From assembly GCA_021018995.1 (NCBI GenBank), contig CM037586.1:5740328-5804327 (forward strand): a stretch of 64,000 nucleotides of DNA, in the 5' to 3' direction. The notes beneath the pieces are model-generated. The model did not search any database and had not been told where the DNA came from. It worked only from the letters and a program-made list of their open reading frames with translations. The position numbers were made by a program, and so were the translations under genes. Each line of letters begins with the position of its first letter. Position 1 is the stretch's first letter. This document shows positions 6,001 through 64,000 of this stretch, piece after piece. The DNA is from Chloranthus sessilifolius (taxonomy: Eukaryota; Streptophyta; Magnoliopsida; Chloranthales; Chloranthaceae).

Positions 6001-8091
6001 GGAGATAGTTCTGTTTGAGAAATTCCAATTTTGCTCAATTTGCATATCTTTTGTCGTAGGAAGAAGTTTCCCATGAAGCTGAGACGGGAAAAATCTACAG
6101 ATCAAATTATATCGACAAGTATGGAAGAACTGTTCTTGTCATGAGACCTGGCTGCCAGGTTTGATCCAAATTTACATGGTCAAGTTTCGAATGGAAGTTT
6201 CTGTTGCACCTTTTGGTGCTTTTCCTAAATCACATTATTTTTAATTTCACTGCAGAACACGAGGTCGACTAAAGGACAAATTAGGTATTTAGTATATTGT
6301 ATGGAGAATGCTATATTAAATCTGCCAACAGATCAGGAACAGATGGTCTGGCTCATTGATTTCCAGGGCTTCAACTTGTCTAATTTATCAGTTAAGGTGG
6401 CACGCGAAACGGCCCATGTTTTGCAAGACCATTACCCGGAAAGGCTGGGTCTCGCAATTTTGTACAATCCACCAAAGTTCTTCGAACCGTTCTTTTTGGT
6501 ACGCCTATGCCTTTTTTCAAAGAAAATTACTCGTATTAACTGTTTCGTTTACCCTTGGATGGGAAAGTAAAAAAGTAATTGAATAAATCTTAAGCATTTG
6601 TTTTAGTGCCATCATATAGCACTCTGCTTCTTATGTACGGGTAGCGTTATTTACACCCTGTGCAACTGTGACCTCACCCCATCTTCTCCGGCCAGTGTGC
6701 ATCTGTTTTCATCCCAATCTTCCACAAAATTGATCTTGAGATCATGGGCGTACCATCTGACGGTTTGTTTTTAATTCAACGTGGCTTAACTCGCAAAAAG
6801 TCACCCTAAAATCACGTTTGAGCATGATATGTACCGTGTGATTTTAGGATCACTTTTTGGGATGCATGCCACGTAGAATTAAAAACTAATCGTCTGATGA
6901 TACACCCATGATCTCAAGATCCATTTTGTGGAGGATTGGTATGAAAAACGATCTCCATCGCCTGTTTCAAAGGGGCCAATGCATACCAGCTGGACGAGAT
7001 GGGTGAGGTAACAGTATATGTTGTTGGAAACTCTTTTATTAACCTGTATCATTATCATTACATTGGTGAGTGATGCCTTGTGGCCAGCGTCCGATCATGC
7101 CAAACTTTCGTTCGACCTGCCCGATAGGCCAAATGTATGTGCCCGACCTGTTTAAAAACCAGTTAGGGTGGCTCGGGTAACTGATCTACCTGATCCATTG
7201 ACAGCACTACTTGTGGCTGATCGAATGCCAAAGCCTTTCTTCTTGATTCTGTCACAAAATTTCAAAATTAATCAAAATTTTAAAAAAATTCCTCTGAATA
7301 GTTGGTCTGTGGAACTAATGGTCACATATTCACTTAATTCATCGATTCTCTGATTTTTTTCGAATTTTTCTCATTATAATACATCATACATGCTCTAATC
7401 ATACTTTGCAGTATTTTTTTTTATTGTAAATGGTTAATGCGCTCGGACTATGCATGTAAATTATGTAATCTCCAATCTTTTTCCGAATTTTTCTGTGACT
7501 CTTTTTCTAATTTATTCGAATTAAACTGAACTCACCCCACCGAATGGTTGTGGAATCCGAACTTTGCTACTATGCTTCTTGGCTGTTTATGTTAATATGG
7601 TTGGGAGCTTAAAAAGTATATTGCAGCTGGTAAAGCCCTTTCTAGAGCCGAAGACTTACAGGAAAGTGAAGTTTGTTTACTCTGATGATCTTGGCACCAA
7701 GAAGATAATGGAGGACCTCTTCGATATGGACAAACTTGAATCTGCATTTGGGGGGAATAATCAATTGGGTTTCAACGTTACCGATTATGCTGAACGGATG
7801 AGAGAAGACGACAAACGGATGCCCTTATTTTGGACCAGAAATAAGCTCCCTGAGTCATCGGAAATTCCAGCTGTGACCGCCATCTCATCTTTTAATGCAG
7901 GCAACTCAGAGTCGGACTCCGATGAATCCAATAAAGAGCTTGTAGAAAACTCTACTCTGTACGAACTTGGTTCAAAACACTCTTCTGTGGACAGTTTGGA
8001 GGAGGCAAATTGCTGCAGCAATGGTGTCGCAGATGTCCGGACTAGTGTGGGAGCAATGAACCTGGAGCCGTGCTCTAATAAGGCGCTATGA
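2847..8091 (+). CDS. SEC14-like / CRAL-TRIO phosphatidylinositol-transfer protein (5' exon missing)
   Basis: Four exons, 2847-3023, 6060-6158, 6256-6498 and 7627-8091, join in phase 0 with GT-AG introns and give about 327 residues plus a missing N-terminal exon. Exon 1 here carries the CRAL-TRIO N domain (YLRARNWSVKKATKML). Exons 2-4 carry the lipid-binding domain with VLVMRPGCQ, WLIDFQGFN, HYPERLG and NPPKFFEPF, then KPFLEPKTY, FVYSDD and ESAFGG. These match the small plant Sec14p-like family, which in yeast and plants binds or exchanges phosphatidylinositol at membranes. The tail after about residue 240 is acidic and serine-rich and looks disordered. All visible exons are open, so the gene may be functional. 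The first exon, expected to encode some 20-30 residues, was not found in the 2.8 kb upstream. An in-frame ATG at 2787 would be an intronic alternative start. Confidence 0.88.
3694..4611. mobile_element. Palindrome-rich non-autonomous DNA transposon (hAT-like)
   Basis: An exact 8-bp TSD, ATAACCAT, lies at 3686-3693 and 4612-4619. The ends are inverted (CAATGTTGTCA on the left, CACTGTTGTCA read inward from the right). The two arms are tiled with short self-complementary words built on GCGATCGC, CTTAAGCG, CATAAGCC and GCATACxxxGTATGC. The middle is AT-rich with a poly-T/poly-A stretch near 3790-3838. No transposase is encoded. The 8-bp TSD points to the hAT superfamily (inference). Confidence 0.8.
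4620..5146. other. Intronic sequence, nothing recognised
   Basis: Between the palindrome-rich element and the LINE tail. There is no coding frame, repeat boundary or RNA-gene signal that I can support. Confidence 0.5.
5147..5605 (+). pseudogene. LINE 3' end inside a SEC14 intron
   Basis: The plus-strand frame reads MAEICILKWMCGVKRKDK, then a broken WFGHVSHVHGRPETDPV, which is the C-terminal end of plant LINE polymerases. It is followed by the typical LINE 3' terminus (accccatgtagattggataaggc, 5550-5572) and a (GAT)n-like tail. It lies in the sense direction of the host gene. The frame is broken after the ILKWMCG block, and the 5' part is missing, as is usual for 5'-truncated LINE copies. Confidence 0.7.
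6060..6158 (+). CDS. SEC14-like gene, second visible exon
   Basis: 33 codons, EEVSHEAETG to RPGCQ, phase 0 on both sides. The acceptor tag ends at 6059 and the donor is gtttga. Confidence 0.85.
6256..6498 (+). CDS. SEC14-like gene, third visible exon (lipid-binding core)
   Basis: 81 codons in phase 0 after a 97-nt intron ending in tgcag. It holds WLIDFQGFN, HYPERLG and NPPKFFEPF, the conserved core of CRAL-TRIO. The donor gtacgc follows FEPFFL; related proteins usually have a Trp at this point, so the exact splice site could differ by a few bases. Confidence 0.83.
6642..7031. mobile_element. Family A foldback MITE in the SEC14 intron
   Basis: The element folds on itself. The left arm contains gatcttgagatcatggg and an accatctgacggt block; the right arm holds their complements (tcgtctgatgatacaccc, then atgatctcaagatcc). 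The TIR-like ends are gttatttacaccctgtgc and its diverged complement near 7020. It is one of about 19 copies or fragments of this family in the window and encodes nothing. Confidence 0.75.
7627..8091 (+). CDS. SEC14-like gene, last exon
   Basis: 154 codons plus stop. It begins LVKPFLEPKTY, contains FVYSDD, MEDLFDMDKLESAFGG and YAERMREDDK, and ends in a Ser/Glu/Asn-rich tail with no recognised domain. The acceptor is ttgcag at 7621-7626. The intron before it (6499-7626) carries a family A MITE. Confidence 0.85.
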   Translation: MVKPFLEPKTYRKVKFVYSDDLGTKKIMEDLFDMDKLESAFGGNNQLGFNVTDYAERMREDDKRMPLFWTRNKLPESSEIPAVTAISSFNAGNSESDSDESNKELVENSTLYELGSKHSSVDSLEEANCCSNGVADVRTSVGAMNLEPCSNKAL

Positions 8092-8922
8092 TCTAAGTAG
8101 CGATTTACCATGCTAACTTTTCGTAAGTTATTTGCAATTTAACATTTGATTCGAACTCGAAATCAATGCGATAAAAATCTCTTTTCTTGAGCAGCAGTCT
8201 CTGAGCATCTGTATCTTGAAATCTAAGCAATTTTCACGAATTTCAATTTACGCACAATTTGTTTATTGCATCTACTTTGAATAATTGACATTTACATGTG
8301 GTAAGCATAGTAAGGTACATGAAGGCTTCCTTAACCATTTTATTTGAATTCTTTAACGTTAACCTCTAAATTGGCGTTCTCAATTTCCGTTCGACGCGAT
8401 GATAAACCAGTTCCGGGAACTCAATAGACTTGAAAACCAATTTTTCTCAAATGCTTATCTACGGCCAAATAGTGGTCTCCTCTTCGGATGCGATTTTATC
8501 ATCTTCTCGTATGTATTACGGCTGAGGAAATAAAGACTACTGAATTCGCAACCCAGGAAGAAAACAAAAACAAAAACCCAAAAAAAAAAAACAGATTTTA
8601 TTGAAAGCTTTAGATTGACTAAATTGGAGCTTTCTATTGGATTATGTGAATGGGATGGGTTTCCTTGGCTGCAGGTTGATCTGGATTAAGGTGTGCATTA
8701 CCTTCTCTAGCTAGTGCATCCTGATTAATGGCTCCCCACATCACTATTTCTGCTATCTTACCATGAATGCAATAACCAAATGGTCTCATCGGAGGCACGA
8801 AGCACACGTTGTACGAAGGGTTGGGCTGTGCCCTCCTCTCGACTCAAATTTGTCATCACAGATGCATTCATGCAAGCCTGTGCCGGTGTTTTCTCCAGGG
8901 CTCATCAAATTATTTTTTCTCT
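8092..8922 (+). other. SEC14 3' flank
   Basis: No coding signal. An aataaa near 8527 could serve as a poly(A) signal, but nothing decides it. Confidence 0.4.
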
Positions 8923-44133: not shown

Positions 44134-44145
44134 TGGTATCAGAGC
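44134..44145 (+). other. tRNA-Met primer binding site
   Basis: TGGTATCAGAGC, two bases after the 5' LTR, complementary to the 3' end of plant initiator tRNA-Met. Confidence 0.9.
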
Positions 44146-48870: not shown

Positions 48871-48997
48871 GAAAAATTTGCATTTTCGGCCCTACAAGTT
48901 TGCTTATTTGCAAAAACGGTCCTATAATTTGAAACTGTGCAAAATAAGCTAGCTCCAAGCCAAGCCGTTTCTACTTCAACATCCACCTGTTTTTTCG

Positions 48998-49045
<48 letters not shown>

Positions 49046-49366
49046 CATTTTTTTTATTGTCCATTTTTTCAGTTTCGACTATAGTAGTGCTCGCTTATAA
49101 TTGCGGGTCGTGATACTCGATATTTTAAGCGCTATCTTGGACGCTATTTTACGATAACGGACGATATTTTATGATCGCAATTGCTAACATTTGATAGATT
49201 TTAGGGTACGAAGAAAAAAAAGAGATTACTGTGTTTATTAGTTAGTGATCTGCCAAAAATATAACAACATAAGACATAAGTAAACAAAAAAAAAAAAAAA
49301 AATTAAAAAACTCGCTAACATACCGCTATCTTAAGATAGCGACCGTTATCTTAAGATTGTGGTCAC

Positions 49367-49424
<58 letters not shown>

Positions 49425-50875
49425 CACCCGCTATCCTAAGATAACGGCCGATATTTATAAAAAATATATATATATATATTTTTATAAGATATTGGCCGAT
49501 ATTTTAAGATATTGACCGATATCCTAAGATAGCGGTTGATATCTTATAAAAAGAATAAAAATAAAAATTATTATTATTATTATTTTTTAAGTTAGCGGTA
49601 TGTTAGCGGCCACTTTCTTAAGATAGCGGCTGCTAACTTATAATTTAAATTATTATATATATATATATATATTTTAAGTTAGCGGTATGTTAGCGGCCGC
49701 TAACTTATAAAAATAAATAAATAATTTTTAAAGATAGCGGCCGCTAACATACTACAAACTTAAAATAAATAAAAATAAATTTTTTTTTTTTTTTAAAAGA
49801 TGTCGGCCGATATCTTAGCGGCCGATATTTTAAGATATCACCTGCTATCCTAAGATAACGGCCGATATTAAAATTTTTTTTTTTTTTTTTTTTTTTTAAG
49901 TTAGCGGTAAGTTAGCGATTTTTTTTTTTAAGTTAGCGGTATGTTAGCGGCCGCTAACTATAAAAAAAAAAAAGAGAATAAATTATTATTATTATTTATT
50001 TTTTTATTTTTTTTAAGATAGCGGTATGTTAGCGGCCGCTAACTTATTAAAAAAAATAATTTTTTTTTTTTTTTTTTTTTTAAGATATCGGCCGATAACT
50101 TAAAATATTGGCCGATATTATAAGATATCGTCTGATATTATAAGTTATCGGTCGATATTATAAGCTATCGGCCGATATGATAAGTTATCGGCCGATATCT
50201 TTAAAAAAAAAAAAAAAAAAAAATTTTTAAAAAAATAAGTTAGCGGTCGCTAACATACCGCTAACTTAAAAAAAAATTTTTTTTTTTATTTTTTATAAGA
50301 TATCGGCCGATATTTAAAAAAAAAAAAAAAAAAATTTTAAGTTAGCGGTATGTTAGTGGCGGCCGCTATCTTATAAAAAAAAAATTGGCGGTATGTTAGC
50401 GGGTAATTTATTATAATTTTTTTTTTTTTTTTTTTAAGTTAGCGGCCCCTAACTTATAATAAAAAAAAAAAGAATAAATTTATTATTATTATTATTATAT
50501 TTTTTTAAGATAGCAATATATTAGCGGCCGCTAACTTATTAAAAAAAAAAAAAATTTAAGTTTGCGGTATGTTAGCGGCTGCTATCTTAAGATAGTGGCC
50601 GCTAACTTTAAAAATAAAAAATAAAAAATAAAATTTAATTCGGCCGATATTTTAAGTTATCGGCCGATATCCTACGATAGCGGCCGATATTAAAAAAATA
50701 TATATATATATTTTTTAAGTTAGCGGTATGTTTGCGGTCATTATCTTAAGATAGCGGTTGCTAACTATAAAAAAAAAAAAAAAAATTTTTTTTTTTTTTA
50801 ATTATTATTTTTTGTAAGATAGCGGTATGTTAGCGGCCGCTAACATACCGCAACAGCCGCTAATAAGCTAGGGAA

Positions 50876-50925
<50 letters not shown>

Positions 50926-51156
50926 AAAACGTGGAACCGACTTGGCTTGGAACTGGCCTATTATGTAAGGATTGAGATTATAGGGTCGTTTCTGCAAATA
51001 CACAAACTTATAAGGCTGAAAGTAAAAATTTCCTATATATATATAAGGGAAACGTGGAACCGGCTTGACTTGGAGCTGGCCTGTTATGTAAGGATTGAAA
51101 TTATAGGGCCGTTTTTGCAAATACACAAACTTATAAGGCCGAAAGTGCAAATTTCC
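48871..51156. mobile_element. 2.3-kb palindrome-tiled foldback element
   Basis: The TSD CAAACTTT lies at 48863-48870 and 51157-51164. Long inverted ends of about 115 bp: from the right GGAAATTTGCACTTTCGGCC, from the left gaaaaatttgcattttcggc, both continuing through tttgcaaaaacgg. The right end is tandemly duplicated (50922-51040 and 51047-51156). Between two (TA)n tracts (48998-49043 and 50878-50922) lie about 1.8 kb made almost wholly of the perfect palindromes TTAGCGGCCGCTAA and ATATCGGCCGATAT and their variants, separated by A or T runs. No coding frame. The 8-bp TSD suggests hAT; the TIR sequence also recalls Mutator ends. Confidence 0.85.
49080..50860. repeat. Array of short GC-core palindromes in AT-rich DNA
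   Basis: At least six perfect or near-perfect gttagcggccgctaac units (for example near 49690, 49735, 49945, 50030, 50525 and 50835) and many atcggccgatat units, plus half-units gcggtatgttagcgg. Each can form a hairpin alone and also pair with its neighbours in either orientation. Confidence 0.85.
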
Positions 51157-53108: not shown

Positions 53109-53696
53109 CGCCTGATTATCCTCACAATTTATGACATCATCGCCCTTATTGACAGTGGTGCTGACATGAATTGTCTTCAAGAGGGATTAGTCCCTTCCTT
53201 TTATTTGACCTCCACTCGTCAGAGTCTCACCAATGCTAGTGGATATCCCATACCTATCCACCACAAACTTAACCATGCTGCTATCCAGCATCATGATATT
53301 TCCATTCCCACTTCCTTTGTGATTCTCCCAAATATCACTCAAACCCTTATCTTAGGGATTCCTTTTAATTCTTCCATCTTTCCCTTTACTCGAGTTGATT
53401 CTCACGGCATTTCTGCCCAATTTCAGGGTCATCCCCTTCACTTCCACTTTCTCTCCTCTCCTTCTGAGGACTCCTTTCCTCATCTTTGTTGTGTCTCCCT
53501 TAACGGAAATACCCAATTCTGGGGGGGTCATCACTACAATCACACTACTCACCATAATCGAATTGGTTCTTCCCATTTGCATGAGCATTTGCATTCACAT
53601 TTGCATACCATCAATCCAGTGGTCTTATATTTATGTGGTGATCCTACACTAGGAAATCACCAGATCACCATTACTTTTCGTGCAGAGGATGACTAG
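53109..53696 (+). pseudogene. Viral segment B, copy 1: aspartic protease with His-rich tail
   Basis: The frame enters from a rearrangement junction and is open to the TAG at 53694. It contains the retroviral-type active site ALIDSGAD (DSG at 53151-53159), NCLQEGLVP and LILGIPF, all matching the protease of the RT-bearing genome (58117-58125). Then comes a segment with 11 His in about 29 residues (around 53527-53613), ending CGDPTLGNHQ and AEDD-stop. No reverse transcriptase follows. The N-terminal part of the polyprotein is missing. In the RT-bearing genome the same position leads straight into RT, so this is a different segment, not a copy of it. Annotated as a fossil. Confidence 0.8.
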
Positions 53697-54519
53697 TTAT
53701 GCTGGAAGCTCTTCTGCCAATGCAGCCAATTCAACAGAAGACAATTTCTCGCCACAAAGAAAAGTTTATGTTGTCCTCAAAGGACACCAACCAGGACTAT
53801 ACACTTCATGGCAATCCTGCCATAGCCAAATTTATAATTTTCCTAGCCCATTATACCAAATGTATAATTCCATCAGAGAAGGCAAATATGCTTTTCAAAC
53901 CTATCAAACCATGCATATCCTTGCCCAATCTCCTATTATGGAAATCAAATACTACTCCAAATAAGAAATTTTCAACATTAGCCATATATCTAATTTCATT
54001 AGCCCACGTATTGATTCCTCCATATACCAAGAAATTAATGGAGTATGGAAAAACCATGTTGCCAATAATAAAAGAAAAGTCAGACAACATTTGAGCATTC
54101 TGGCATCCAAAATTCAGGCTCAAGAAGCCCATACCCAACAACTTTATGAAGGCCTAACCTCATTACTCAAGAACTTCAATTGGGAAGAAGAAACCTTTTC
54201 CTTTGAGAAAATTTCCTATTTCCTCAACCTTATTGAATTGGTGAAACAAAATGATCCAATTCTGCATCGCCTTAAAAGAATCTGCATGTTTGAAAAAGCC
54301 AAACATGTTCTTCCAATTGATATTTCCCAAAATATTGTATCTCAAGTTGAGGATTCGGCTACTCAGATCAAACAAATCTTATTGCAGAATTGTCAATTTA
54401 TCAACCACCTTCAGGGTTACTATCTCTCAAAATTTTCTTTGTTCACGCCTGATTATCCTCATAATCTTTCCCAAGGTTTTGATTGGAGATTAGAAAGAAC
54501 AAGAGAGAATGCTAGATAA
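53689..54519 (+). pseudogene. Viral segment B, copy 1: hybrid-binding-domain ORF
   Basis: The ATG at 53689 overlaps the protease stop (ATGACTAG). After a Ser/Asn-rich 25-residue start, YVVLKGHQPGLYTSW followed by an aromatic QIYNF block matches the RNase H1 / caulimovirus viroplasmin N-terminal domain, which binds RNA-DNA hybrids or RNA. A TAA at 53962 interrupts the frame; it then stays open to 54519 through a helical domain with LKRICMFEK and PIDISQ. The last codons are read from the fused promoter region, so the natural C-terminus is lost (compare copy 2, 62022-62833). Confidence 0.78.
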
Positions 54520-54930
54520 AATTTTCGGTGTAAATACTCGGTGTGAATTTTTGATGTCCTGAACAATCCCCAGGCTAACCCTTTTATAGATGAATGCGGA
54601 TTTGAAGTGGTTTGAAATCCGCTATTGATTGATGAATACGGACTTGAAATGAATTGAAATCCGCCGCTGAGTGGGACACGTGTGCTGGGTGGATTGGTTG
54701 CAGTCGCTTCGTCCCTTGATAATTGTGTTCTGACGTAAGGGCATGCGTCAGTGCTTCATAATTGGAATGATGACTTCATGGACAGCTGGTAAGGCTATTG
54801 GCCTTTAATAATTTAAATGGTAGGGTCTCTGATGATGTGTGAGCAAATAACTACTTTGACTGATTTGTCACTTTATTAATGTGAAGTGACAGCTTCATTG
54901 GCTGTATTGATAGTTGCTTGGAGTGATGGA
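54494..54930 (-). promoter_or_regulatory. Pararetroviral promoter region, copy 1
   Basis: A 35S-like arrangement on the minus strand: an as-1-like pair of TGACG motifs (TGACGcatgcccttACGTCA, 54731-54750), a TATA box TATAAAAG at 54581-54588, and a leader start in a CT-rich stretch. The first 300 bp agree with copy 2 (61093-61400) at most positions, and similarity continues weakly to the ORF ends. It lies downstream of ORF2 of the RT-bearing genome. as-1 elements bind TGA-type bZIP factors in 35S promoters (established). Confidence 0.82.
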
Positions 54931-54973
54931 CAGCTGTATTGGCTGGGAAATAGCTGTATTGATGGTTGGCTAA

Positions 54974-56266
54974 TTATTTCTTACTTTTGACCTGATTAAT
55001 GGTTGAGTCCCAATATTCGCCGAGTGAATGATCAGGACTGTCTGATTGCGATTCCCCTGCTAGAACATGGAAGGAATTATTGTTTTCAGACGAAGTGAGG
55101 GAATCTTCATCCGAATGGGATACTGAATTGAAGGTTTGAAGAAAATAGGCTTTCATGGAAGCAAGACAACGATGATTAATCTGTGTCTCAGATAAATCGG
55201 GATGTTGTTTTCGAATCATGGATTTGAATATTTCAAAAGGATTAGATTTTAAAGAAGATAAAGAAGCCTCAGGTTTTGCTGTTTTGGCATGCCGAGATAT
55301 AATGGATGAAATTTCAAGTAGTTTTTTGTCAAAATCGGGAATATTATCCCACCATCGGATCCAGTAAGTTCTTTGAAGTGTGGGAAGATGGTCAATAGTG
55401 GTAATTTGAATATTCCATATCCAAATCCATGGAATACTGCATTCTGTGAAGAAAAAGAAATCAACTTCAGAGAAATAAAAATTTTTTCCTTTGAATTTTA
55501 CTCCTTCATATTAATTATATAAAGGAATTAATGATTTGGGTAAAATTTTGGTAGTTGGACCGAAATAACTCCACCAATTATAGAACCAATTAGGAATGCC
55601 AGCTTGAAGGATATCTGGACAAATCTTTAGAAACCAGGAATGTTTCTGTTTGGGATTCATATAATAGAAGGCATTGGTGAAGGATTGAATATAATCCCAA
55701 TAATTAAAAGAATGGCCTGAACTGAGTTTGCGGGATTTATTTAGGTCAAAACCCCAAATGGAGGGTTTAATGATTTTATGAATAATGGCTTTACTATAGG
55801 TAATTGGGCTATTTGGCCGTAGGTTTTCCATATGATGGGTAAAGGTAATGGATCCAGTAGCGGTCAAAATTGCTTCTGCAATTAGACGGGTTTTACCATC
55901 CAATGCAGGAAATCCTTGATTGTCAAGATATCGTCTCTTTAGTTCCCAGGGATCAGATATCCATTGCTGATCTTCTGGTTCAATTACCAGAATGGTGAAA
56001 AATATATCCTTTTGAATATAAGAAATTTCTTTTGTTTCCATCTTCTCTTTATTGAGAGAAGTTTTCTCTTTATTGGAAGTAGTTTTTTCTTTATTGAGAG
56101 AAATATCTTTTTTAGCAGAGTCCTTAAATTGAAAGCCTCCTTTTGTTCGATGTCTATTACTTTGGATAATTGTCCAAAGAGCATGATCATCTATGGATTC
56201 TTGATTTGAGGCTAAGGGGATATTGCCCCTTTCTTTACCTTTTCCTCCTGAGGAGGATGCCGCCAT
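54974..56266 (-). pseudogene. Viral ORF2 of the RT-bearing genome (one internal stop)
   Basis: One frame from an ATG at 56266 to a stop at 54974, about 430 codons, interrupted only by a TAA at 55511-55513. Its ATG overlaps the stop of the preceding polyprotein as TAATG. It begins MAASSSGGKGKERG, has a Lys/Ser-rich repeat (SLNKEK-type, three copies), then a Trp/aromatic-rich central domain (WDYIQSFTNAFYYMNP, WFYNWWSYFGP) and an acidic C-terminus. A second ORF of unknown function after RT is typical of florendoviruses (established); no biochemical role can be read from the sequence. Confidence 0.75.
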
Positions 56267-57899
56267 TAAGAAATATCCTGTAAAAATTCTCTAGTTAGAA
56301 AATCAGGGAGAGAATTTGTTTCTCCTTGTATATATTCAATTTGAAAATCAAAGGAGGATAGTTCAGCTTGCCATTTAGCAAAGATTTGCTTTGATGCAAG
56401 ATTTTTGACATCTTTTTGTAAAACAGATTTTGCTGAACTACAATCTATTCGAAGCAAGAAGGACTGATTAAGTAAATCATCCTGAAATTTTTGAATACAT
56501 TTGACAATGGCGAGAACTTCTTTTTTAATAGTTGAATAATTAATTTGGGGATCTTTCCAAACACCAGAAGTATATCTAATTAATTCTTCCTTCTGTTTGG
56601 AGGGATTGAGTTGTTTTAAAATTCCTCCATAGCCTAGTTGAGAGGCATCTCTCTCAACTGTCTTATACCAAAGTGGATTAGCTAAAGAGAGACAGAGAAT
56701 TTGTTTGACTTTTAATTTGATTTGCTGAACAGCTTTGGTATGGGCATCAGTCCATGGAGATGGATTCTTTTGGAGTCGTGATTGTAATATCTTTACATCA
56801 TATGTCAGGTTAGGAATAAAATTTACAACATAATTCAGACTGCCTAAAAATCTTTGTAATTGGGTTTTGTCCAGAATTACATCAGAAAATTTTGAGGCAA
56901 ATTCAATACTTCTGTCATTTGGGATAATTTGACCTTGGTGAATATTATGACCAAGAAATCGAATAGATGTTTGAAATAACTTGATTTTAGGAGCAGAAAC
57001 TACTAACCCATTTTTGTGGATAATGTCTTTGAAAATTTTGAGATGTTTAAAATGTTGGTCAATAGACTTTGAAAAGATAAATATGTCATCAATATAGACT
57101 ATAGAAAATTCAGTATATGGAGTAAATATCTCATTCATAATATTTTGAAATTCAGAAGGAGCATTTTTAAGGCCAAATGGCATAACATTCCATTCAAAGT
57201 GTCCAAAAGGAACAGTAAAAGCAGTTTTATACCAGTCAGTCTCGGCCACCTGAATTTGCCAATACCTTGATTTGAGATCAAACTTGGAAAAAATAGTGGC
57301 TGAATGTAAGCGATCCAGCAAATCCTTTTTGTTAGGAATAGGATAACGAATCCATTGGAGGCAATCATTTAATGGTTTATAATTGATAACTAGTCGAGGA
57401 GTTCCTCGTTCTCGTTCAGCATTTTTATTCACATAAAAAGCTGTACAACTCCATGGGGAGTGACTGGGACGAATAAGTTGTTTGTGCAATAAACTGGCAA
57501 TTTCAGTTTTGCATAATTCCAAATAAGCAAGTTTCATTTGACTTGGTCTTGCTTTAGTTGGAATATGTCGTTCATTGAAATCAGGATTATAGGGAAGAGA
57601 AACAATATGTTTCTTGCGATCCCAAAAAGCATTTAGTATATCACTACAAATTTCATTGTGGTAAGACTTCAAAAGTTGAGAAATCTTGGTTTGGATTGAA
57701 GGGGATTCCAATTGTTTTTCTAAAGATAAGAATTTGACTTCTTGTTGTAAGAAGTTAAGTTGCTGTTCTTTGAAAAATAAATTAGATTCCACAGAATTGA
57801 TAACTTTTATTTGTGGTGGAGTTACAAATTGAAATAGGAGATTATATCCATTATATTGGGCATAAATACCATTTTCATCTACCTTGGTTAAGGGGAAAA
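56266..57899 (-). pseudogene. Viral reverse transcriptase and RNase H
   Basis: The frame is open for 508 codons (57792-56266) and continues upstream in frame to a stop at 58021. RT signatures: RLVINYKPLN, FSKFDLKS, FTVPFGHFEWNVMPFGLKNAP, the catalytic YIDD (57085-57096), and FLGHNI. RNase H signatures: DASQLGYGG, then a Glu in KKEVLA, an Asp in LRIDC and an Asp in LPDFL, so the catalytic acidic residues are all present. It copies pregenomic RNA into DNA and removes the RNA. Being so open it may be a rather young or selected copy, but the rest of the polyprotein is broken. Confidence 0.9.
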
Positions 57900-58410
57900 T
57901 TGAGGTGATAAAAGGAGTACCAAGAATAACTATTTGAGTTAAATCTTTGATAAGTATAAAATTGGCTGAAATACATACTCCATTATTACAAATTGAGACA
58001 TAATTTAATTTGTATTTAATTTACATTTTGTAACCACTAGCATTATTAAGGGTTTGAGTGGTTTTATCAAAATATTGGGTAGGAACCAATCCTTCCTGTA
58101 TACAATTTAAATCAGTGCCACTATCAATTAGAGCAACAACATCTTTGATAGTGAATTCTTGATTGATTACCAAAGTAATTTGAATATACCATTTTTGAGC
58201 TGTTACTTGGCTCAGGACATTGATTAGATTATGTTGTTGAATTGGTGGTTGAGTAGCAAGAGATTTCTTTTGCTTACTCATCTCGATTTTTAATGAATTA
58301 ATTTCATGCTTAAGGTCACTGATTGTAACAGGTCTAGGTATAGACTCATTATTTGAATATTGAGGTTGAGATTCTTTTATTGGATTAGTAATTTTGTGTG
58401 CTAATTCCAA
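57900..58410 (-). pseudogene. Viral aspartic protease
   Basis: Active site VALIDSGTDLN (DSG at 58117-58125), then CIQEGLVP. An in-frame TAA at 58021-58023 falls between the active site and the ILGTPF flap-side block, so the polyprotein cannot be made whole. The frame is the same as the downstream RT. It would process the viral polyprotein. Confidence 0.85.
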
Positions 58411-59272
58411 TAAAGATGGTTGATTATTTGTAGGAATGGTGGTTCCAGAATTTTGACAATTTATTATTGATTGATCAAAAGATGGAGAAAATTCAGATTT
58501 TGTCTGAATAAGTTTTGGGTCTTTGTCATAAAGTTGGTCTGATTTTTTCTTGACCTTACACCTGTTGGCATAATGACCAAACTTTAAACATTTATAACAT
58601 TGAATATGTTCTCGTGATTTTGATTTAGATTTTGATTTCTTTGGTGAAGAAGACTCAAATATTTTTTTAGTTTTCTGTTTATAAAAACTTGGAGGATAAG
58701 ATTTGGATTTAGAATTTTCTTTTTGAGTTAAAACATTTATCTGAGAATTTGTTTGTTTTATTTATTTTTTACCAGATAATGCTTTTAATCGAGATTTTAA
58801 TTGATAAATAAATTCTTGATAGGGATTAGTATATTGTACTAAGGAAGTGTTTGATTTATCAATAGATTTGATACAAACTTTGGTTTCCAAAGTTGTTGTG
58901 GGATTCGATTGAGGAAGTTTTAAGGCTTCAATAGGAGGGTAAACTGACTGAATAGTTAACCCATCCAGTTTTTTCCATTCTTTTTGGAAATCCTCAAGGA
59001 GAAATATTTTCCTTTCATCCTGAGTCATTTCAAGATATTTTGTTGCTTTAAACCAAGTAACAAATGGAATTACTTGGTAAAAAGTTTCAATATATTGATA
59101 GAATTATTCTTTGAATTCCTGTAATTTTGATGCAGAAAATTTTTTAAAATACCATTCACGGAATGGTGCATATTTATCTTGCTAAAACTCAGCATTGATT
59201 TCTTGTCTATTGATAACAAAGTTTTCTGGTTTTATAAAAGCCATAAAAACTTTTATTAATGAATTGAGAAAT
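58411..59272 (-). pseudogene. Viral capsid region with CCHC zinc knuckle
   Basis: A zinc knuckle CYKCLKFGHYANRC (58558-58599; C-x2-C-x4-H-x4-C) lies in a Lys/Arg-rich context, as at the C-terminus of caulimovirid coat proteins, where it binds the viral RNA. Upstream, 59028-58762 is open with a basic end. Several stops interrupt the region 59040-59272. The frame is mostly that of the protease. Confidence 0.8.
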
Positions 59273-60309
59273 TCATCTCGCTAGCAGTAGGGGATTCCCT
59301 CTGCTGTTGGGTATATATCCCATGAAGAATCTGTTGTTCAGAAACTTGAATTCCTTCCAGATTTGGTTGATTAAATTCAGAAGAAACAAATGAGTTAGCT
59401 TCTGAATAAGATGATCGAGCAGTCGAGGGTATAGAAACTCTATAAGGACCTCGAGACCTCGAATCAGAATAAGAACTCCTATAAGAAGTTCTGTGGGATG
59501 TTGATCTATCAAATTTTAAGATTACATCACCCTGGGTATTTTGAACAATTTGTTCAATTTCTTAGTTTAAAATTGGTTTAGGTGAGACAGCTTGAGGTAT
59601 ACGTCAAGCATCAGGAAAAGTAATATTTTTCCATTCACATAGTTTTTGTGTAGCAACATTAGTGGTTGCACTATTAGTCTCAATTAAGACTATTCTTCCT
59701 GGTTCATTTTGATAATTAATTTTAGGAACCAGAGAAGTCATCACCTTATAATGAAGGCGATAGATCAGAGCAATAGTCTCTGATCCAGGCATAAAGTTGT
59801 ATCCCTCAGTTTAGAGATGAAGGGTACAAGCATGAAAAATATTTTTATCTGTTAAAGATAAAGTTAAAATTGGGAAAACATTGTAGTATATTGGACCAAG
59901 GCATAAGCTGGTCTCAATAGCGGCCATCAGAGAGGATCGCCAATCAAGGCATCTAGCATCTCTGAGAGTGCTAAGTATACTAATATTTTCTAGACCCAAT
60001 AAGGTCAAAGGCTTGAATGCATCCTAAATGAAGAAATTTGAAACGATGAAGGTCATGTAAAAGATCTTCGTTGGAAAGTAATTGAAAACCTTCATTTTGA
60101 CTTTCTTCATTTATACTGAGAGTTTGCTCAGTAGTTTTGATCGACATGTCGGTGGACCAATCTTTCCATCCATATTGATAGATTGTTTTAGGATTGATGA
60201 AATGTATTGTCCATCGATTTAATTGATTTTGTTGGTCATCAATTTGAGACCATTTATCTAATTGCTTATTTTTGATTAATTTTTTGGAGGAAAAATTAAA
60301 AAGAGACAT
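59273..60309 (-). pseudogene. Viral movement protein region and N-terminus of ORF1, frameshifted
   Basis: The start MSLFNFSSKKLIK at 60309, followed by WTIHFINPKTIYQYGW, matches the N-terminus of florendo/petuvirus-type polyproteins, where the 30K-type movement protein that widens plasmodesmata comes first. The coding continues in other frames (60008-59811, 59792-59604), so at least two frameshifts and stops are present. The part 59512-59273 is rich in Ser/Arg and of uncertain frame. Confidence 0.7.
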
Positions 60310-61092
60310 AAAATTGATGATTTTTTTTTTTTTTTTTAAACAGTAAAAATAAGAAAGGGTAAAAGAGCTTTTGGTAAAACCAATAAGACTGTAATTACAT
60401 ATGGGAATAGTAATGTTGGAATAGTTTTACTATAGTGAATAGTGATTCGAAATACTATTCATCAGCATAGTAAATTACTATTTACCTTCTCCTCCATAAA
60501 TTTCCATGGACTTCTTACAGAAATTCATTTAGATTTACTACTAGATTGTTGTTGCAAAACTACGTCCGTCCACGATAACTTTTACGGGGAATCAACCGGC
60601 AACAACACAATCCCTGCTATAATGCCATCAAGTCATCCCAACGCGACTTCCCACGCTACCACAGCATAATAGTAAATCTAAACAGACCATTATAAGTCAT
60701 CCATAAAAACCGCTGAAGAAGACGATGAACAGTAGTTCATACGCCCATGATTAGCTACCCTAATCATGATGCACTACCTCTCAAGATTTCAACACTAGCC
60801 ACCCGCCATATGTAATTATCACGGGCTTAGCCGGACATGGCTCTGATACCAAACTCAGAGTAGGGGGAAGACGTGGTTGCGGAAGAGACGAAAGCACACG
60901 GGAAGAAAACCTTATATCATATATTAATACTAATAAAATAAACTTACAATTCTCAAAACATATGGAATCTTACACTATACACACACTATGCAACTACTAT
61001 GCAGCTACTATGCATGCATTAAACAAATATATACAAATGGAGGAAGCTTACCGAAACCTTGAGTAGCTTCTCCGATACACACTTATACTAAA
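60310..61092 (-). other. Viral leader between promoter and ORF1
   Basis: About 780 nt with no long frame. It holds the primer site (60836-60851), a poly-A run just before ORF1 (T run at 60322-60338 on +), and an insert-like block about 60416-60690 whose ends (gttggaatagttttactat and ggtctgtttagatttactat) are roughly inverted, possibly a MITE. Long leaders are usual in this virus family. Confidence 0.6.
60836..60851 (-). other. tRNA-Met primer binding site of the pararetrovirus
   Basis: The minus strand reads TGGTATCAGAGCCATG, complementary to plant initiator tRNA-Met. It lies about 290 nt downstream of the expected transcription start, where minus-strand DNA synthesis of caulimovirids begins. 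Confidence 0.92.
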
Positions 61093-61516
61093 AGAAAGAA
61101 CAAGAGAGAATGCTAGGTAAAATTTTCGGTGAAAATACTCGGTGTCCTGGACAATCCCCAGGCTAACCCTTTTATAGATGAATGCGGATTTGAAGTGGTT
61201 TGAAATCCGCTACTGATTGATGAATGCGGACTTAAGATGAATTGAGATCTGCCGCTGAGTGGGACACGTGTGCTGGGTGGATTGGTTGCAGTCGCTTCGT
61301 CCCTTGATAATTGTGACCTAACGTAAGGGCATGCGTCAGTGCTTCATAATTGGAATGATGACTTCTTGGGTAGCATCATGGAAAGCTGGTGAGACTATTA
61401 TATTGGCCGACAATAATCGATATATGGGGTCCAGTAAGATTCTTGGACGATTTGTCATTGGCAGCTTTATTGACTGTTTTGGATGTTGCTTGGAGTAGTG
61501 ACAGCAGTATTGTCTA
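61093..61516 (-). promoter_or_regulatory. Pararetroviral promoter region, copy 2
   Basis: TATA box TATAAAAG at 61169-61176 and an as-1-like site (61319-61338; one TGACG changed to TAACG on the plus side). It is followed leftward by the leader and primer site, so it would drive the RT-bearing genome; upstream of it stands the 3' end of segment B (61529). Confidence 0.82.
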
Positions 61517-61528
61517 GACCTTATGATT

Positions 61529-62833
61529 TCATGCGATTGCCAAGATTCTGATAAAATCTTCAATGTCATGAGATAAGCCATATAATTCTTTTTCTTGAAT
61601 AGCGGCAACAATTTTTAAGTCAACAGGAAGATAGAGATTTGTCCTGCTAATTAATTGTTGGAGGAATTGGTCTGCTTCATGATCTTGCTGAGAAGTCGTC
61701 ATGCACTCCATTGATAAATTTGTGAGAAAGATTCTTCTTCCGTCAGTAATTTTGAAGGAATAATTTTCTTTGGTATTTCTGCTTGCTTCTTGTGAGAAAT
61801 GTATTAATGAATGGATCCAATAAGATCGGGGAGAAATTGATTCAGCCAGAGATAGCGAAGAAGGATGAGGCAAACATTTTGGCATGTGGATATATGAAAA
61901 TTCATGGAGGAGGGTTTTTCGAAGAATCCACATTTGATAAGGTTGAAAGAATTGTTCTCTAGATCTCCAGCCAATAGTGCTAGTGATCCATAAGGCAAGA
62001 TGAATACTACTAGGTAAGGATCTAGCAGCATGGAATAGCATAGATTTGATCATTGTCAGAAATGGAGAAAATAATTTGATTGATCAAACCCCAATCAAGG
62101 CATTGAAGAAGATTGTGAGGGTAATCATGACTGAAAAGAGAAATTTTTAGAAGATGAAAACCCTGAAGAGTATTAAGGAATTGATAGTTTTTCAAGAGAA
62201 TTGTTTTGATTTCAAAAGCAGGATTCTCAATAATAGATTGAGAAATATCAATGGGGAAAGCATATTTGAGTTTCTCAAACATGCAGATGCGTTTGAGACT
62301 GTGGAAAATAGGATCATTGAAATGAGGTTCAATGGAGGCAATGAGGTCAAGAAAATGATTGATAATGGAAAATTTTTCTTCTTCCCAGTTGAACTCCCTT
62401 AATAAAGAGATAAGACTATCATATAATAATTTAATTTGGCATTGTTGAGTCTGGCTCTTGTTGGTAAGGAAACTCAGATGTTGCTGAATTCTTTTCATAT
62501 TTTGATCCATATGGTTTGGACCTATATCACTTCCATCCTGGTAAAGGTCAGGGTTAATACAGTCAGGGATAGGTCTTGGGTTATGGATACTAGGTTTTGG
62601 TAGTATTTGGGTAGTTAAATATGAGTCAAAAGCTTCTTGGGCTTTTTGTAGGGAATTGTGTATCTGGTATAATGAATTGGGAAATTATAGATTTGGCTAT
62701 GACAAGTTTGCCAAGAGGTATAAACACCTGGGTTGAAACCTCTAAGGACAGTATAAGCTTTTCTTTGGGGCGAAAAATTGTCTTCTGTTGAATTGGCTGT
62801 ATTGGCAGAAGAGTTTCCTGTAAGGCTAGTCAT
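61529..62833 (-). pseudogene. Viral segment B, copy 2: hybrid-binding-domain ORF
   Basis: The ATG at 62831-62833 again overlaps the protease stop (ATGACTAG). The N-terminal domain has VYTSWQTCHSQIYNF (62833-62615). After a break, the helical domain with LKRICMFEK and PIDISQ follows (62510-62022); then, one frame over, about 170 residues with GWRSREQFFQP and a C-terminus ELYGLSHDIEDFIRIL (62053-61529) that copy 1 lacks. Two frameshifts and one stop at least. The ORF ends 13 nt before the shared promoter region. The protein would be about 430 residues. Confidence 0.75.
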
Positions 62834-62834
62834 T

Positions 62835-63185
62835 CTCTGCAATAAAATTAGTGGTGAGCTGGTGATTTCCTATTGTAGGATCACCGCATAAATATAAGAC
62901 CACTGGAGTGGTGGTGTGCGAATGCTCATGCAAATGGGAATAAACAATTCTATTATTGTGAGTAGTGTGATTGTAGTGATGAGCCCCTCAGAATTGGTTA
63001 TTACCGGAAAGGGAGACACAACAAAGGTGAGGAAAGGAGTCCTCAGAAGGAGAGGAGAGAAAATGAAATCGAAGGGGATGACCCTTAAATTGGGCAGAAA
63101 TGTCATGAGAATCTACCCTGGTAAAGGGAAAGATAGAAGGAATCCCTAAGATAAGAGTTTGAGTGATGTTTGGAAGAATCACAAA
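62835..63185 (-). pseudogene. Viral segment B, copy 2: protease C-terminal half with His-rich tail
   Basis: ILPNITQTLILGIP and CCVSLSGNNQF, a TGA at 62988, then a His-rich block (8 His in about 27 residues), CGDPTIGNHQ and END-stop, matching copy 1 throughout. Sequence to the right of about 63220 no longer matches copy 1, so the DSG half is missing or replaced. Confidence 0.75.
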
Positions 63186-63219
63186 AGAAGTGGAAATGGA
63201 AGTTTTTACGAAGTATGAT

Positions 63220-64000
63220 GCATACCTCTAATAGTAATGCTGAAAATACCAATTGTTTACTGGGGTTGTTTGATACTTAAAAAACTTTTAGTTTAGCTTG
63301 CTGGGGTAATTACCCTGCTAGGGATAATAAGGCGTCCAAAAAGATGGAATTTTGGAACGACTTTGAAGATAAGATTTTGTGGGATAAACAAGAGAAAAGA
63401 ATAAAAACGGATTTGGGTTAAATTCCATTGGGAATAAAAGAAATAAATTTGTATGCTGGCAAATTCCATGCAAAATCATTTATGGGGGTTTGGAAATTAT
63501 GACCAAGAAATTAAATAATTTATAATTTTATGATTGGATTAATCATGCTATTCTCAAAGATTTTTAAATATTTATATGGGAATTTGGTGTGCATAAGGCC
63601 TGATGGCCATTCATGCCATTCCAAATGCCAAGAAAGACTAAAGGTAGCATAATAATTTGTGTGCCTATGATTGTGTTGGTTATAGGCATTGTATTGGTTG
63701 TACCTATTCGTGTAGGTATATTGTTGGATGAGGTTATTCATTGGATGTAAAAAAGGAAGTAAATTTGCATGGAGAGTCCTTGGAATGAAAAGTTTATTGT
63801 GTAATTTAATAATAAAAAGAAAAGTAAGTAGAAATGGAATGATAGGAAAAGTTAGGAGAAATAGAAAGGAAAGTGGTAGGAGACATGGGGGCCCCAAAAT
63901 TACACAATGAGGTTTTGGGATGAGACATAAAGAGGAACCCAAAGAAGGAGATTCCAAAGGATGTGTGAATGGGATATTGTCTACCGTAGGTGAATAAGGT
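63220..64000 (-). other. Continuation of segment B (unassigned) to the window edge
   Basis: A minus-strand frame of 145 codons (63957-63520) has a Pro/Leu-rich start and an Asn/Tyr-rich YNQYNAYNQHNHRHTNYY stretch. A low-complexity region of this kind could be an interdomain linker of a viral polyprotein, but no domain is recognised. The locus runs beyond the window. Confidence 0.4.

What the first reader, a model, noticed from the sequence alone, without database searches (positions are those of the whole stretch)
53109..63185. A second viral segment with protease and hybrid-binding ORF but no RT beside an RT-bearing pararetrovirus: candidate bipartite genome
Two inverted copies (53109-54519 on +, 63185-61529 on -) carry the same gene order: protease, short overlap, then an ORF starting with a viroplasmin/RNase H1-type hybrid-binding domain. 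Neither has RT after the protease, whereas the minus-strand genome between them has protease-RT-RNase H-ORF2. Protease active-site blocks are alike (ALIDSG.D, NC.QEGLVP), so both segments come from related viruses. Some florendoviruses were proposed to have bipartite genomes (Geering et al. 2014); the content seen here, particularly the hybrid-binding ORF, may be a new form of the second component.
Basis: partly seen in the sequence, partly recalled or inferred. Interest (0 to 1): 0.88.

Follow-up and report, generated by a model that had tools for sequence, protein, structure and literature searches.

The report
Three-part fossil plant pararetrovirus
This plant genome holds well over a hundred fossil copies of a pararetrovirus whose genes lie on two, likely three, kinds of DNA unit with a shared control region, and these units likely travelled together as one divided viral genome.

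Summary
An RT-bearing pararetrovirus unit (A, minus strand) lies between two RT-less protease + hybrid-binding-ORF pieces, which are not copies of one segment. The left piece (53124-54491, +) is class B-I; whole B-I units carry movement protein, coat protein, zinc finger, protease and an ORF with a Cauli_VI (RNase H1 N-terminal) domain. The right piece (64000-61529, -) is class B-II: no coat-protein core, a class-specific ORF, a B-type protease, a diverged Cauli_VI ORF. The A copies tested lack the coat-protein core; B-I and B-II lack RT. The classes share the movement-protein gene and primer-side intergenic half at ~95% identity, as alike between classes as within (the other half is 86-91%). 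Units are ~6.5-6.7 kb, co-locate far above chance and join head to tail in six class combinations. Of 126 coat-protein hits compared with 80 RT hits, one sits directly upstream of RT, only 212 bases away.

The divided-genome reading is supported and resembles the bipartite florendoviruses of Geering 2014. Apparently new: a Cauli_VI (TAV-like) domain on the RT-less component, and a likely third component. Joint packaging and replication are inferred; genus was not tested with a reference tree.

The parts
53124..54491 (+). B-I fragment (end of protease, start/stop overlap, Cauli_VI ORF), truncated at both ends
53124..53693 (+). B-I aspartic protease part (PF00077)
53689..54491 (+). B-I Cauli_VI (PF01693) ORF from its ATG inside ATGACTAG; here truncated and broken by an in-frame stop
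54492..54781 (-). A unit: second, partial copy of the intergenic region (91% to 61093-61369); abrupt junction with B-I at 54491/54492; sets the A unit length at 6601 bases
54974..56290 (-). A unit: third ORF (position of florendovirus ORF2), in two open pieces; no Pfam match
56266..58020 (-). A unit: reverse transcriptase and RNase H (PF00078, PF17919, PF17917)
58021..58761 (-). A unit: zinc knuckle and start of protease (PF00077)
58762..59103 (-). A unit: stretch that leads directly to the zinc finger; coat-protein core absent
59300..60426 (-). Movement-protein gene region shared by A, B-I and B-II; PF01107 found in the L035 copies
60430..61369 (-). Shared intergenic region
60840..60851 (-). 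Exact tRNA-Met primer-site motif
   Evidence: motif recalled
61529..62869 (-). B-II Cauli_VI ORF, in several open pieces here
62870..63201 (-). B-II protease part
63523..64000 (-). Part of the B-II-specific ORF; the unit runs on past the window end

Best explanation
The window holds one compound insertion of three kinds of unit, A (RT, no coat-protein core), B-I (in its whole copies coat protein and an ORF with a hybrid-binding-type domain, no RT) and B-II (such an ORF plus a class-specific ORF, neither RT nor coat-protein core), which share an intergenic region and movement-protein gene and likely co-replicated as the divided genome of one florendovirus-like virus. Likely mechanism (inferred): each unit was a ~6.5-6.7 kb circle transcribed from the common region; A supplied RT-RNase H in trans, B-I supplied the capsid, and the common tRNA-Met primer site let that RT copy every unit. 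Template switching or recombination in the common region would have kept it uniform and joined units head to tail. The Cauli_VI protein is predicted to bind duplex RNA or RNA:DNA hybrids, like caulimovirus P6/TAV, would have organised the replication/translation compartment, and is probably translated by reinitiation at the ATGACTAG overlap. Units were then captured together into the chromosome.
For: Shown here. (a) Complementary gene content: RT found in A, coat-protein core (PF24925 3.1e-30, PF22909 5.7e-7) in B-I. The core is absent in 6 of 6 A copies tested and in the B-II copy L033. (b) Of 126 of the 127 coat-protein rows (one row lost in copying), compared with 80 RT rows, 1 lies directly upstream of an RT within 5 kb on the same strand; its gap of 212 bases leaves no room for zinc finger and protease. 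(c) Movement-protein gene, 16 rows: A1-A1 95.3%, A1-BI 95.0%, A1-BII 95.8%; the classes interleave on the tree, as much as shuffled labels. (d) Intergenic half next to the movement protein: A1-A1 94.7, A1-BI 95.0, A1-BII 95.2, BI-BI 95.0%. (e) Co-location: 13 of 13 close A copies (A1) lie within 50 kb of a listed B copy, class-by-class chance <0.1; 30 of 80 RT rows lie within 50 kb of a coat-protein row, ~0.5 expected. (f) Matched lineages: B-I partners of A1 are 94-100% like the window's (10 of 10 pairs), those of A2 89-90% (3 of 3); an A2 and two lower-identity B-I movement proteins form one clade, support 100/100. (g) Head-to-tail joins B-I>A, B-I>B-II, B-I>B-I, B-II>A, B-II>B-I and, by spacing (4.05-4.27 kb), A>B-I at 6 loci. 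(h) Unit lengths 6601 (A), 6714 (B-I in L035). (i) Cauli_VI ORF, B-I against B-II: dN/dS 0.22 over 280 codons; open for 464 codons in 5 of 21 B-I copies.
Against: No particle, transcript or episome was seen; trans-replication and packaging are inferred. The intergenic half away from the movement protein is only 86-91% alike. A2 copies are near a listed B copy in only 4 of 27 cases, though the lists hold the 40 best rows per query. Co-location could also arise by repeated insertion into older viral DNA. Both structure models failed (mean pLDDT 35.6 and 33.6), so the fold of the Cauli_VI protein is untested. No relative of that protein was found elsewhere, so the arrangement rests on one genome. 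The nearest (TA)n run lies 2.2 kb from the left edge, outside the 1 kb that Geering et al. counted. Each dN/dS value is one pair.
Confidence: 0.72

Rival explanations
1. A and B-I form a bipartite virus; B-II is a parasitic or defective satellite that kept the common region and a second Cauli_VI gene but added nothing the virus needed.
For: B-II has neither RT nor coat-protein core in the copies read and looks mosaic: an A-like 5' half whose protease region lost the active-site motif, and a B-like 3' half. Its class-specific ORF shows no measurable constraint among copies (ratios 0.80 and 1.00). Its protease is far closer to B-I's (dS 0.26) than its Cauli_VI ORF is (dS 1.33), a recombinant's mark.
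Against: 41 rows at 88-98% identity, 40 of 517 candidates scored; near A1 in 8 of 13 cases. Its Cauli_VI ORF diverged to 56% identity under purifying selection (0.22), so it was used.
Confidence: 0.45
2. B units are defective elements that depended on a complete helper virus (coat protein and RT in one unit); A is another defective form.
For: A one-piece relative exists: the Cajanus protein P0059 has coat-protein core, zinc finger, protease and RT in one chain. Geering et al. leave the helper possibility open.
Against: In this genome 1 of 126 coat-protein rows compared lies directly upstream of RT, without room for zinc finger and protease. A more distant A lineage (RT 83% aa) also seems to lack the core, though only 1.5 kb was read.
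Confidence: 0.15
3. One large ~13 kb genome with A and B halves in fixed order and a duplicated common region.
For: A>B-I joins at a near-constant 4.05-4.27 kb spacing at 6 loci, and B-I>A joins.
Against: B-I>B-I, B-I>B-II, B-II>A and B-II>B-I joins also occur, so no order is fixed.
Confidence: 0.04
4. An LTR retrotransposon, or rearrangement of one virus after integration.
For: Ty3/Gypsy elements also have protease and RT; the locus is rearranged.
Against: RT matches an 'Enzymatic polyprotein' (8r0s, 1.1e-85) better than Ty3 (2e-56) (that 8r0s is caulimovirid is recalled); movement and coat proteins are present; no integrase family in the ORFs scanned; the same unit architecture recurs at many loci.
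Confidence: 0.02

Closest known systems
Bipartite florendoviruses (Vitis vinifera B and D virus, Oryza sativa B virus, Sorghum bicolor virus; Geering et al. 2014, PMC4241990, abstract and passages seen)
   Same: Component A with the coat protein reduced and RT kept; component B with movement protein, coat protein and protease but no RT; common intergenic region and movement protein; compound insertions; unit size 5.5-6.9 kb.
   Different: Their B carries a C-terminal extension homologous to the A component's ORF2 in one polyprotein. Here it is a separate overlapping ORF with a Cauli_VI domain and no detectable similarity to the A third ORF, and there is a second B class without the coat-protein core.
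Glycine max virus (florendovirus with ORF1 split after the movement protein; PMC4241990, passages seen)
   Same: A double stop follows the movement protein in 17 of the 19 places matched here.
   Different: That virus is presented as a single three-ORF genome in the passages seen.
Cauliflower mosaic virus P6/TAV (PMC5670102, PMC7102451, passages seen)
   Same: Domain PF01693, related to the RNase H1 hybrid-binding domain, on a downstream ORF of a caulimovirid.
   Different: Only the ~40-residue domain is recognisable here. PMC5902531 (passages) states that no TAV homologue is recognisable by BLAST in Florendovirus.
Geminivirus common region (recalled)
   Same: A near-identical non-coding region that marks the parts of a divided DNA genome.
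   Different: Rolling-circle DNA viruses, unrelated replication.

Membership tests
Caulimoviridae | RT closest to caulimovirids, movement protein, no integrase | tested here: met
   8r0s 'Enzymatic polyprotein' 1.1e-85 against Ty3 2e-56 (that 8r0s is caulimovirid is recalled); MP PF01107 1.6e-11 and coat domain PF22909 5.7e-7; no integrase family in the ORFs scanned
Florendovirus | RT falls in the florendovirus clade | not tested
   No named genus references at hand; among named hosts, Vitis 65% and Cajanus 68%
Florendovirus | Domain order MP-CP(zinc finger)-AP-RT-RH1 plus ORF2 | tested here: inconclusive
   Met only when A and B-I are read together; MP is split off by stops
Florendovirus | ORF2 homologous to the florendovirus ORF2 protein | not tested
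   A third ORF sits in that place; no reference sequence compared
Florendovirus | tRNA-Met primer site in the intergenic region | tested here: met
   Exact motif at 60840-60851(-) and in 17 of 48 loci (several loci overlap, many do not reach the region)
Bipartite florendovirus | Complementary components: A with reduced CP, B without RT | tested here: met
Bipartite florendovirus | Intergenic region >90% and MP >87% nucleotide identity between components | tested here: inconclusive
   MP ~95% and primer-side intergenic half ~95% pass; the other half averages 86-91%, within class as well as between
Bipartite florendovirus | B carries an ORF2-homologous C-terminal extension | tested here: not met
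   phmmer E >= 0.2 between Cauli_VI ORF pieces and A third ORF; structure comparison impossible, so very remote homology is not excluded
TAV / viroplasmin (P6) | PF01693 domain | tested here: met
   3.6e-10 in L031, 1.7e-9 in B-II L048; RNase H1 1qhk 5.9e-5
TAV / viroplasmin (P6) | Translational transactivation, inclusion bodies | not testable with these tools
   needs expression
LTR retrotransposon (Metaviridae) | Integrase and LTRs | tested here: not met
   no integrase family in the ORFs scanned; repeats are unit-length tandem copies of the intergenic region

The most novel reading that the evidence does not exclude
A tripartite reverse-transcribing virus: one unit makes the enzyme, one the capsid, and a third a second TAV-like protein plus a class-specific protein, all tied together by a common promoter/primer and movement-protein region. 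It would be the first three-part genome among viral retroelements and the first florendovirus with a TAV-like domain.
Probability: 0.38. Interest if true: 0.87.

Novelty: new variant of a known kind. Interest (0 to 1): 0.7.

Why it matters
In the papers seen, divided genomes among viral retroelements are reported only for florendoviruses (PMC4241990, PMC10377300, passages), and their B components are hard to annotate (PMC9719215, passages). This case adds a recognisable domain, Cauli_VI, to the RT-less component and suggests a third component. A common region shared by three classes in dozens of loci makes co-evolution of the parts testable by sequence alone in related hosts. It also bears on how a one-piece pararetrovirus, with coat protein and RT in one polyprotein as in the Cajanus relative, came to be split.

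Tried and rejected
Considered and rejected: LTR retrotransposon (no integrase family in the ORFs scanned, tandem unit instead of LTRs); simple inverted duplication of one segment (82%/66% identity); fixed 13 kb fusion genome (joins in many combinations).

Led nowhere: structure prediction of the Cauli_VI protein and of the A third ORF (mean pLDDT 35.6 and 33.6), so no fold search was made; protein database searches with the Cauli_VI protein, single and as profile, no hit; scan of viral contigs, no relative; the PF01693 genome search scored 150 of 1598 candidates, and the two loci read (L001, L002) are transposon ORFs rather than viral. A genome search with the B-II-specific ORF did not complete. 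The first script for the start/stop overlap had a pattern error and was redone.
Full report
Check of the observation. The window lies in an unnamed plant genome of 2.17 Gb in 32 contigs (that it is a plant is inferred from the virus and its copies). The left piece is 53124-54491: the 39 other rows of a genome search start and end close to those limits, and the next base belongs to the intergenic region of unit A. The right piece is a different class, 82% then 66% alike to the left, and reaches the window end.

What whole B units look like. In 16 fetched loci the B-I homology extends far beyond the window piece. Unit B-I reads: shared intergenic region; movement protein (PF01107, 1.6e-11); coat protein (PF24925 3.1e-30, PF22909 5.7e-7); zinc finger and protease (PF00077, 1.9e-5); ORF with Cauli_VI (2.2e-9); intergenic region again. 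In 16 of 16 loci an intergenic match of 61-304 bases follows the Cauli_VI ORF and no RT lies between. RT matches elsewhere in these loci, in the same scan, were two: an A unit on the other strand in L037 and a distant RT in L032 beyond the intergenic region. Intergenic copies in L035 are 6714 bases apart.

Unit A and the missing coat protein. The window's A unit has a 6601-base period. Between movement protein and zinc finger, A copies match only about the first 77 residues of the B-I coat-protein ORF; its core is absent in 6 of 6 A copies tested (window, L034, L035, L042, L049, L050) and in the B-II copy L033. A more distant A lineage (RT 83% aa) seems to have the same gap in the 1.5 kb read. 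A Cajanus protein with 68% RT identity carries coat core, zinc finger, protease and RT in one chain; the B-I coat protein matches it at 45% over 143 residues. Genome-wide, 126 of 127 coat-protein rows (127 of 911 candidates scored) were compared with 80 RT rows (80 of 88614 candidates scored). One lies directly upstream of an RT, 212 bases away, too close for zinc finger and protease; eight lie within 6 kb downstream of an RT, six of them at 4.05-4.27 kb, the spacing of an A unit followed by a B-I unit.

Class B-II. It has 41 rows at 88-98%, 40 of 517 candidates scored. Reading L033, L044 and L048: shared intergenic region and movement protein; the A-like stretch without coat core; zinc finger; a protease-like region without the active-site motif; a class-specific ORF with a second, weak zinc-finger-like repeat (E 4e-5); a B-type protease; a Cauli_VI ORF (1.7e-9). 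The class-specific ORF has no Pfam match. Unit length is about 6.5 kb by adding the parts seen in two loci (an estimate).

Shared region. Movement-protein genes are as alike between classes as within (A1-A1 95.3, A1-BI 95.0, A1-BII 95.8, BI-BI 94.8%) and interleave: the B-I label needs 6 changes, shuffled mean 5.5 (one A2 and one B-II row only; 3 of 13 inner branches well supported). The intergenic half next to the movement protein gives 94.6-95.3% for every class pair; the far half averages 86-91%, within class as between.

Co-location and matched lineages. With the 40, 40 and 41 rows listed, 13 of 13 A1 copies lie within 50 kb of a B copy, 12 of 12 without the window's cluster, and 4 of 27 A2 copies do; Fisher p 2e-7 for the difference. 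The low A2 figure is probably in part a limit of capped lists: with the coat-protein rows, 30 of 80 RT rows lie within 50 kb of a coat-protein row, ~0.5 expected. The 121 copies fall into 78 clusters, three with A1, B-I and B-II together. A1's B-I partners are 94-100% like the window's (10 pairs), A2's 89-90% (3 pairs), and an A2 movement protein groups with those of two lower-identity B-I units at 100/100. Later insertion into older viral DNA could inflate clustering, but would not by itself give the lineage match. Head-to-tail joins occur in six class combinations, one of them (A then B-I) inferred from spacing.

The Cauli_VI ORF. Between B-I and B-II it is 56% identical with dN/dS 0.22 (dS 1.33); the protease gives 0.43 with dS 0.26, which points to a mosaic history. 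It is open for 464 codons in 5 of 21 B-I copies, and its ATG overlaps the protease stop as ATGACTAG in 24 of 26 B copies. The domain matches RNase H1 structures (1qhk 5.9e-5, 3bsu 0.04). Nothing similar was found in the protein database or viral contigs. It has no detectable similarity to the A third ORF, unlike the B extension described by Geering et al.. [quoted passage not shown]

Against known systems. Geering et al. 2014 (abstract and passages) define A and B by complementary domains, >90% intergenic and >87% movement-protein identity, and compound insertions; this case fits, with the far intergenic half on average at or below that mark. Beet is a further reported case (PMC10377300, passages). 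No mention of a viroplasmin domain in a florendovirus B component, or of three components, came up in the listings of searches or in the passages read; these cover open-licence papers only, most listed papers were not opened, and the supplements of Geering et al. were not read. PMC5902531 (passages) says no TAV homologue is recognisable by BLAST in Florendovirus. Genus membership remains untested.

Verdict. Divided genome with A and B-I: well supported by sequence. B-II as a working third component: likely but open; a satellite is about as likely. Replication in trans, packaging and the role of the Cauli_VI protein: inferred.

Noticed in passing
L001 and L002 (best PF01693 hits of the host genome): A Cauli_VI ORF sits beside a transposase-like ORF in both loci (DDE_Tnp_4 tested in L001); the genome search had 1598 candidates, so a hybrid-binding-type domain may be common in host DNA transposons.
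   Followed up: partly
window 48990-51156: Long (TA)n runs and arrays of a palindromic repeat 2-4 kb left of the viral insertion.
   Followed up: no
window 44134-44145 (+): An exact tRNA-Met primer-site motif outside the viral insertion, possibly an LTR element.
   Followed up: no
L034 245-1711: A diverged movement-protein copy (73-78% nt), in both orientations, perhaps of another related virus.
   Followed up: no
L032, oriented 7861-8921: A distant RT (36% and 23% aa) beside a B-I copy.
   Followed up: no
L051 (G000:C13:13676900-13678400): A third A lineage (RT 83% aa; movement-protein end about 60% aa) that seems to lack the coat-protein core and lacks the double stop after the movement protein.
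   Followed up: partly
G000:C10:32340917-32343623 (-): The only coat-protein hit directly upstream of an RT among those compared, 212 bases apart; not read in detail.
   Followed up: no
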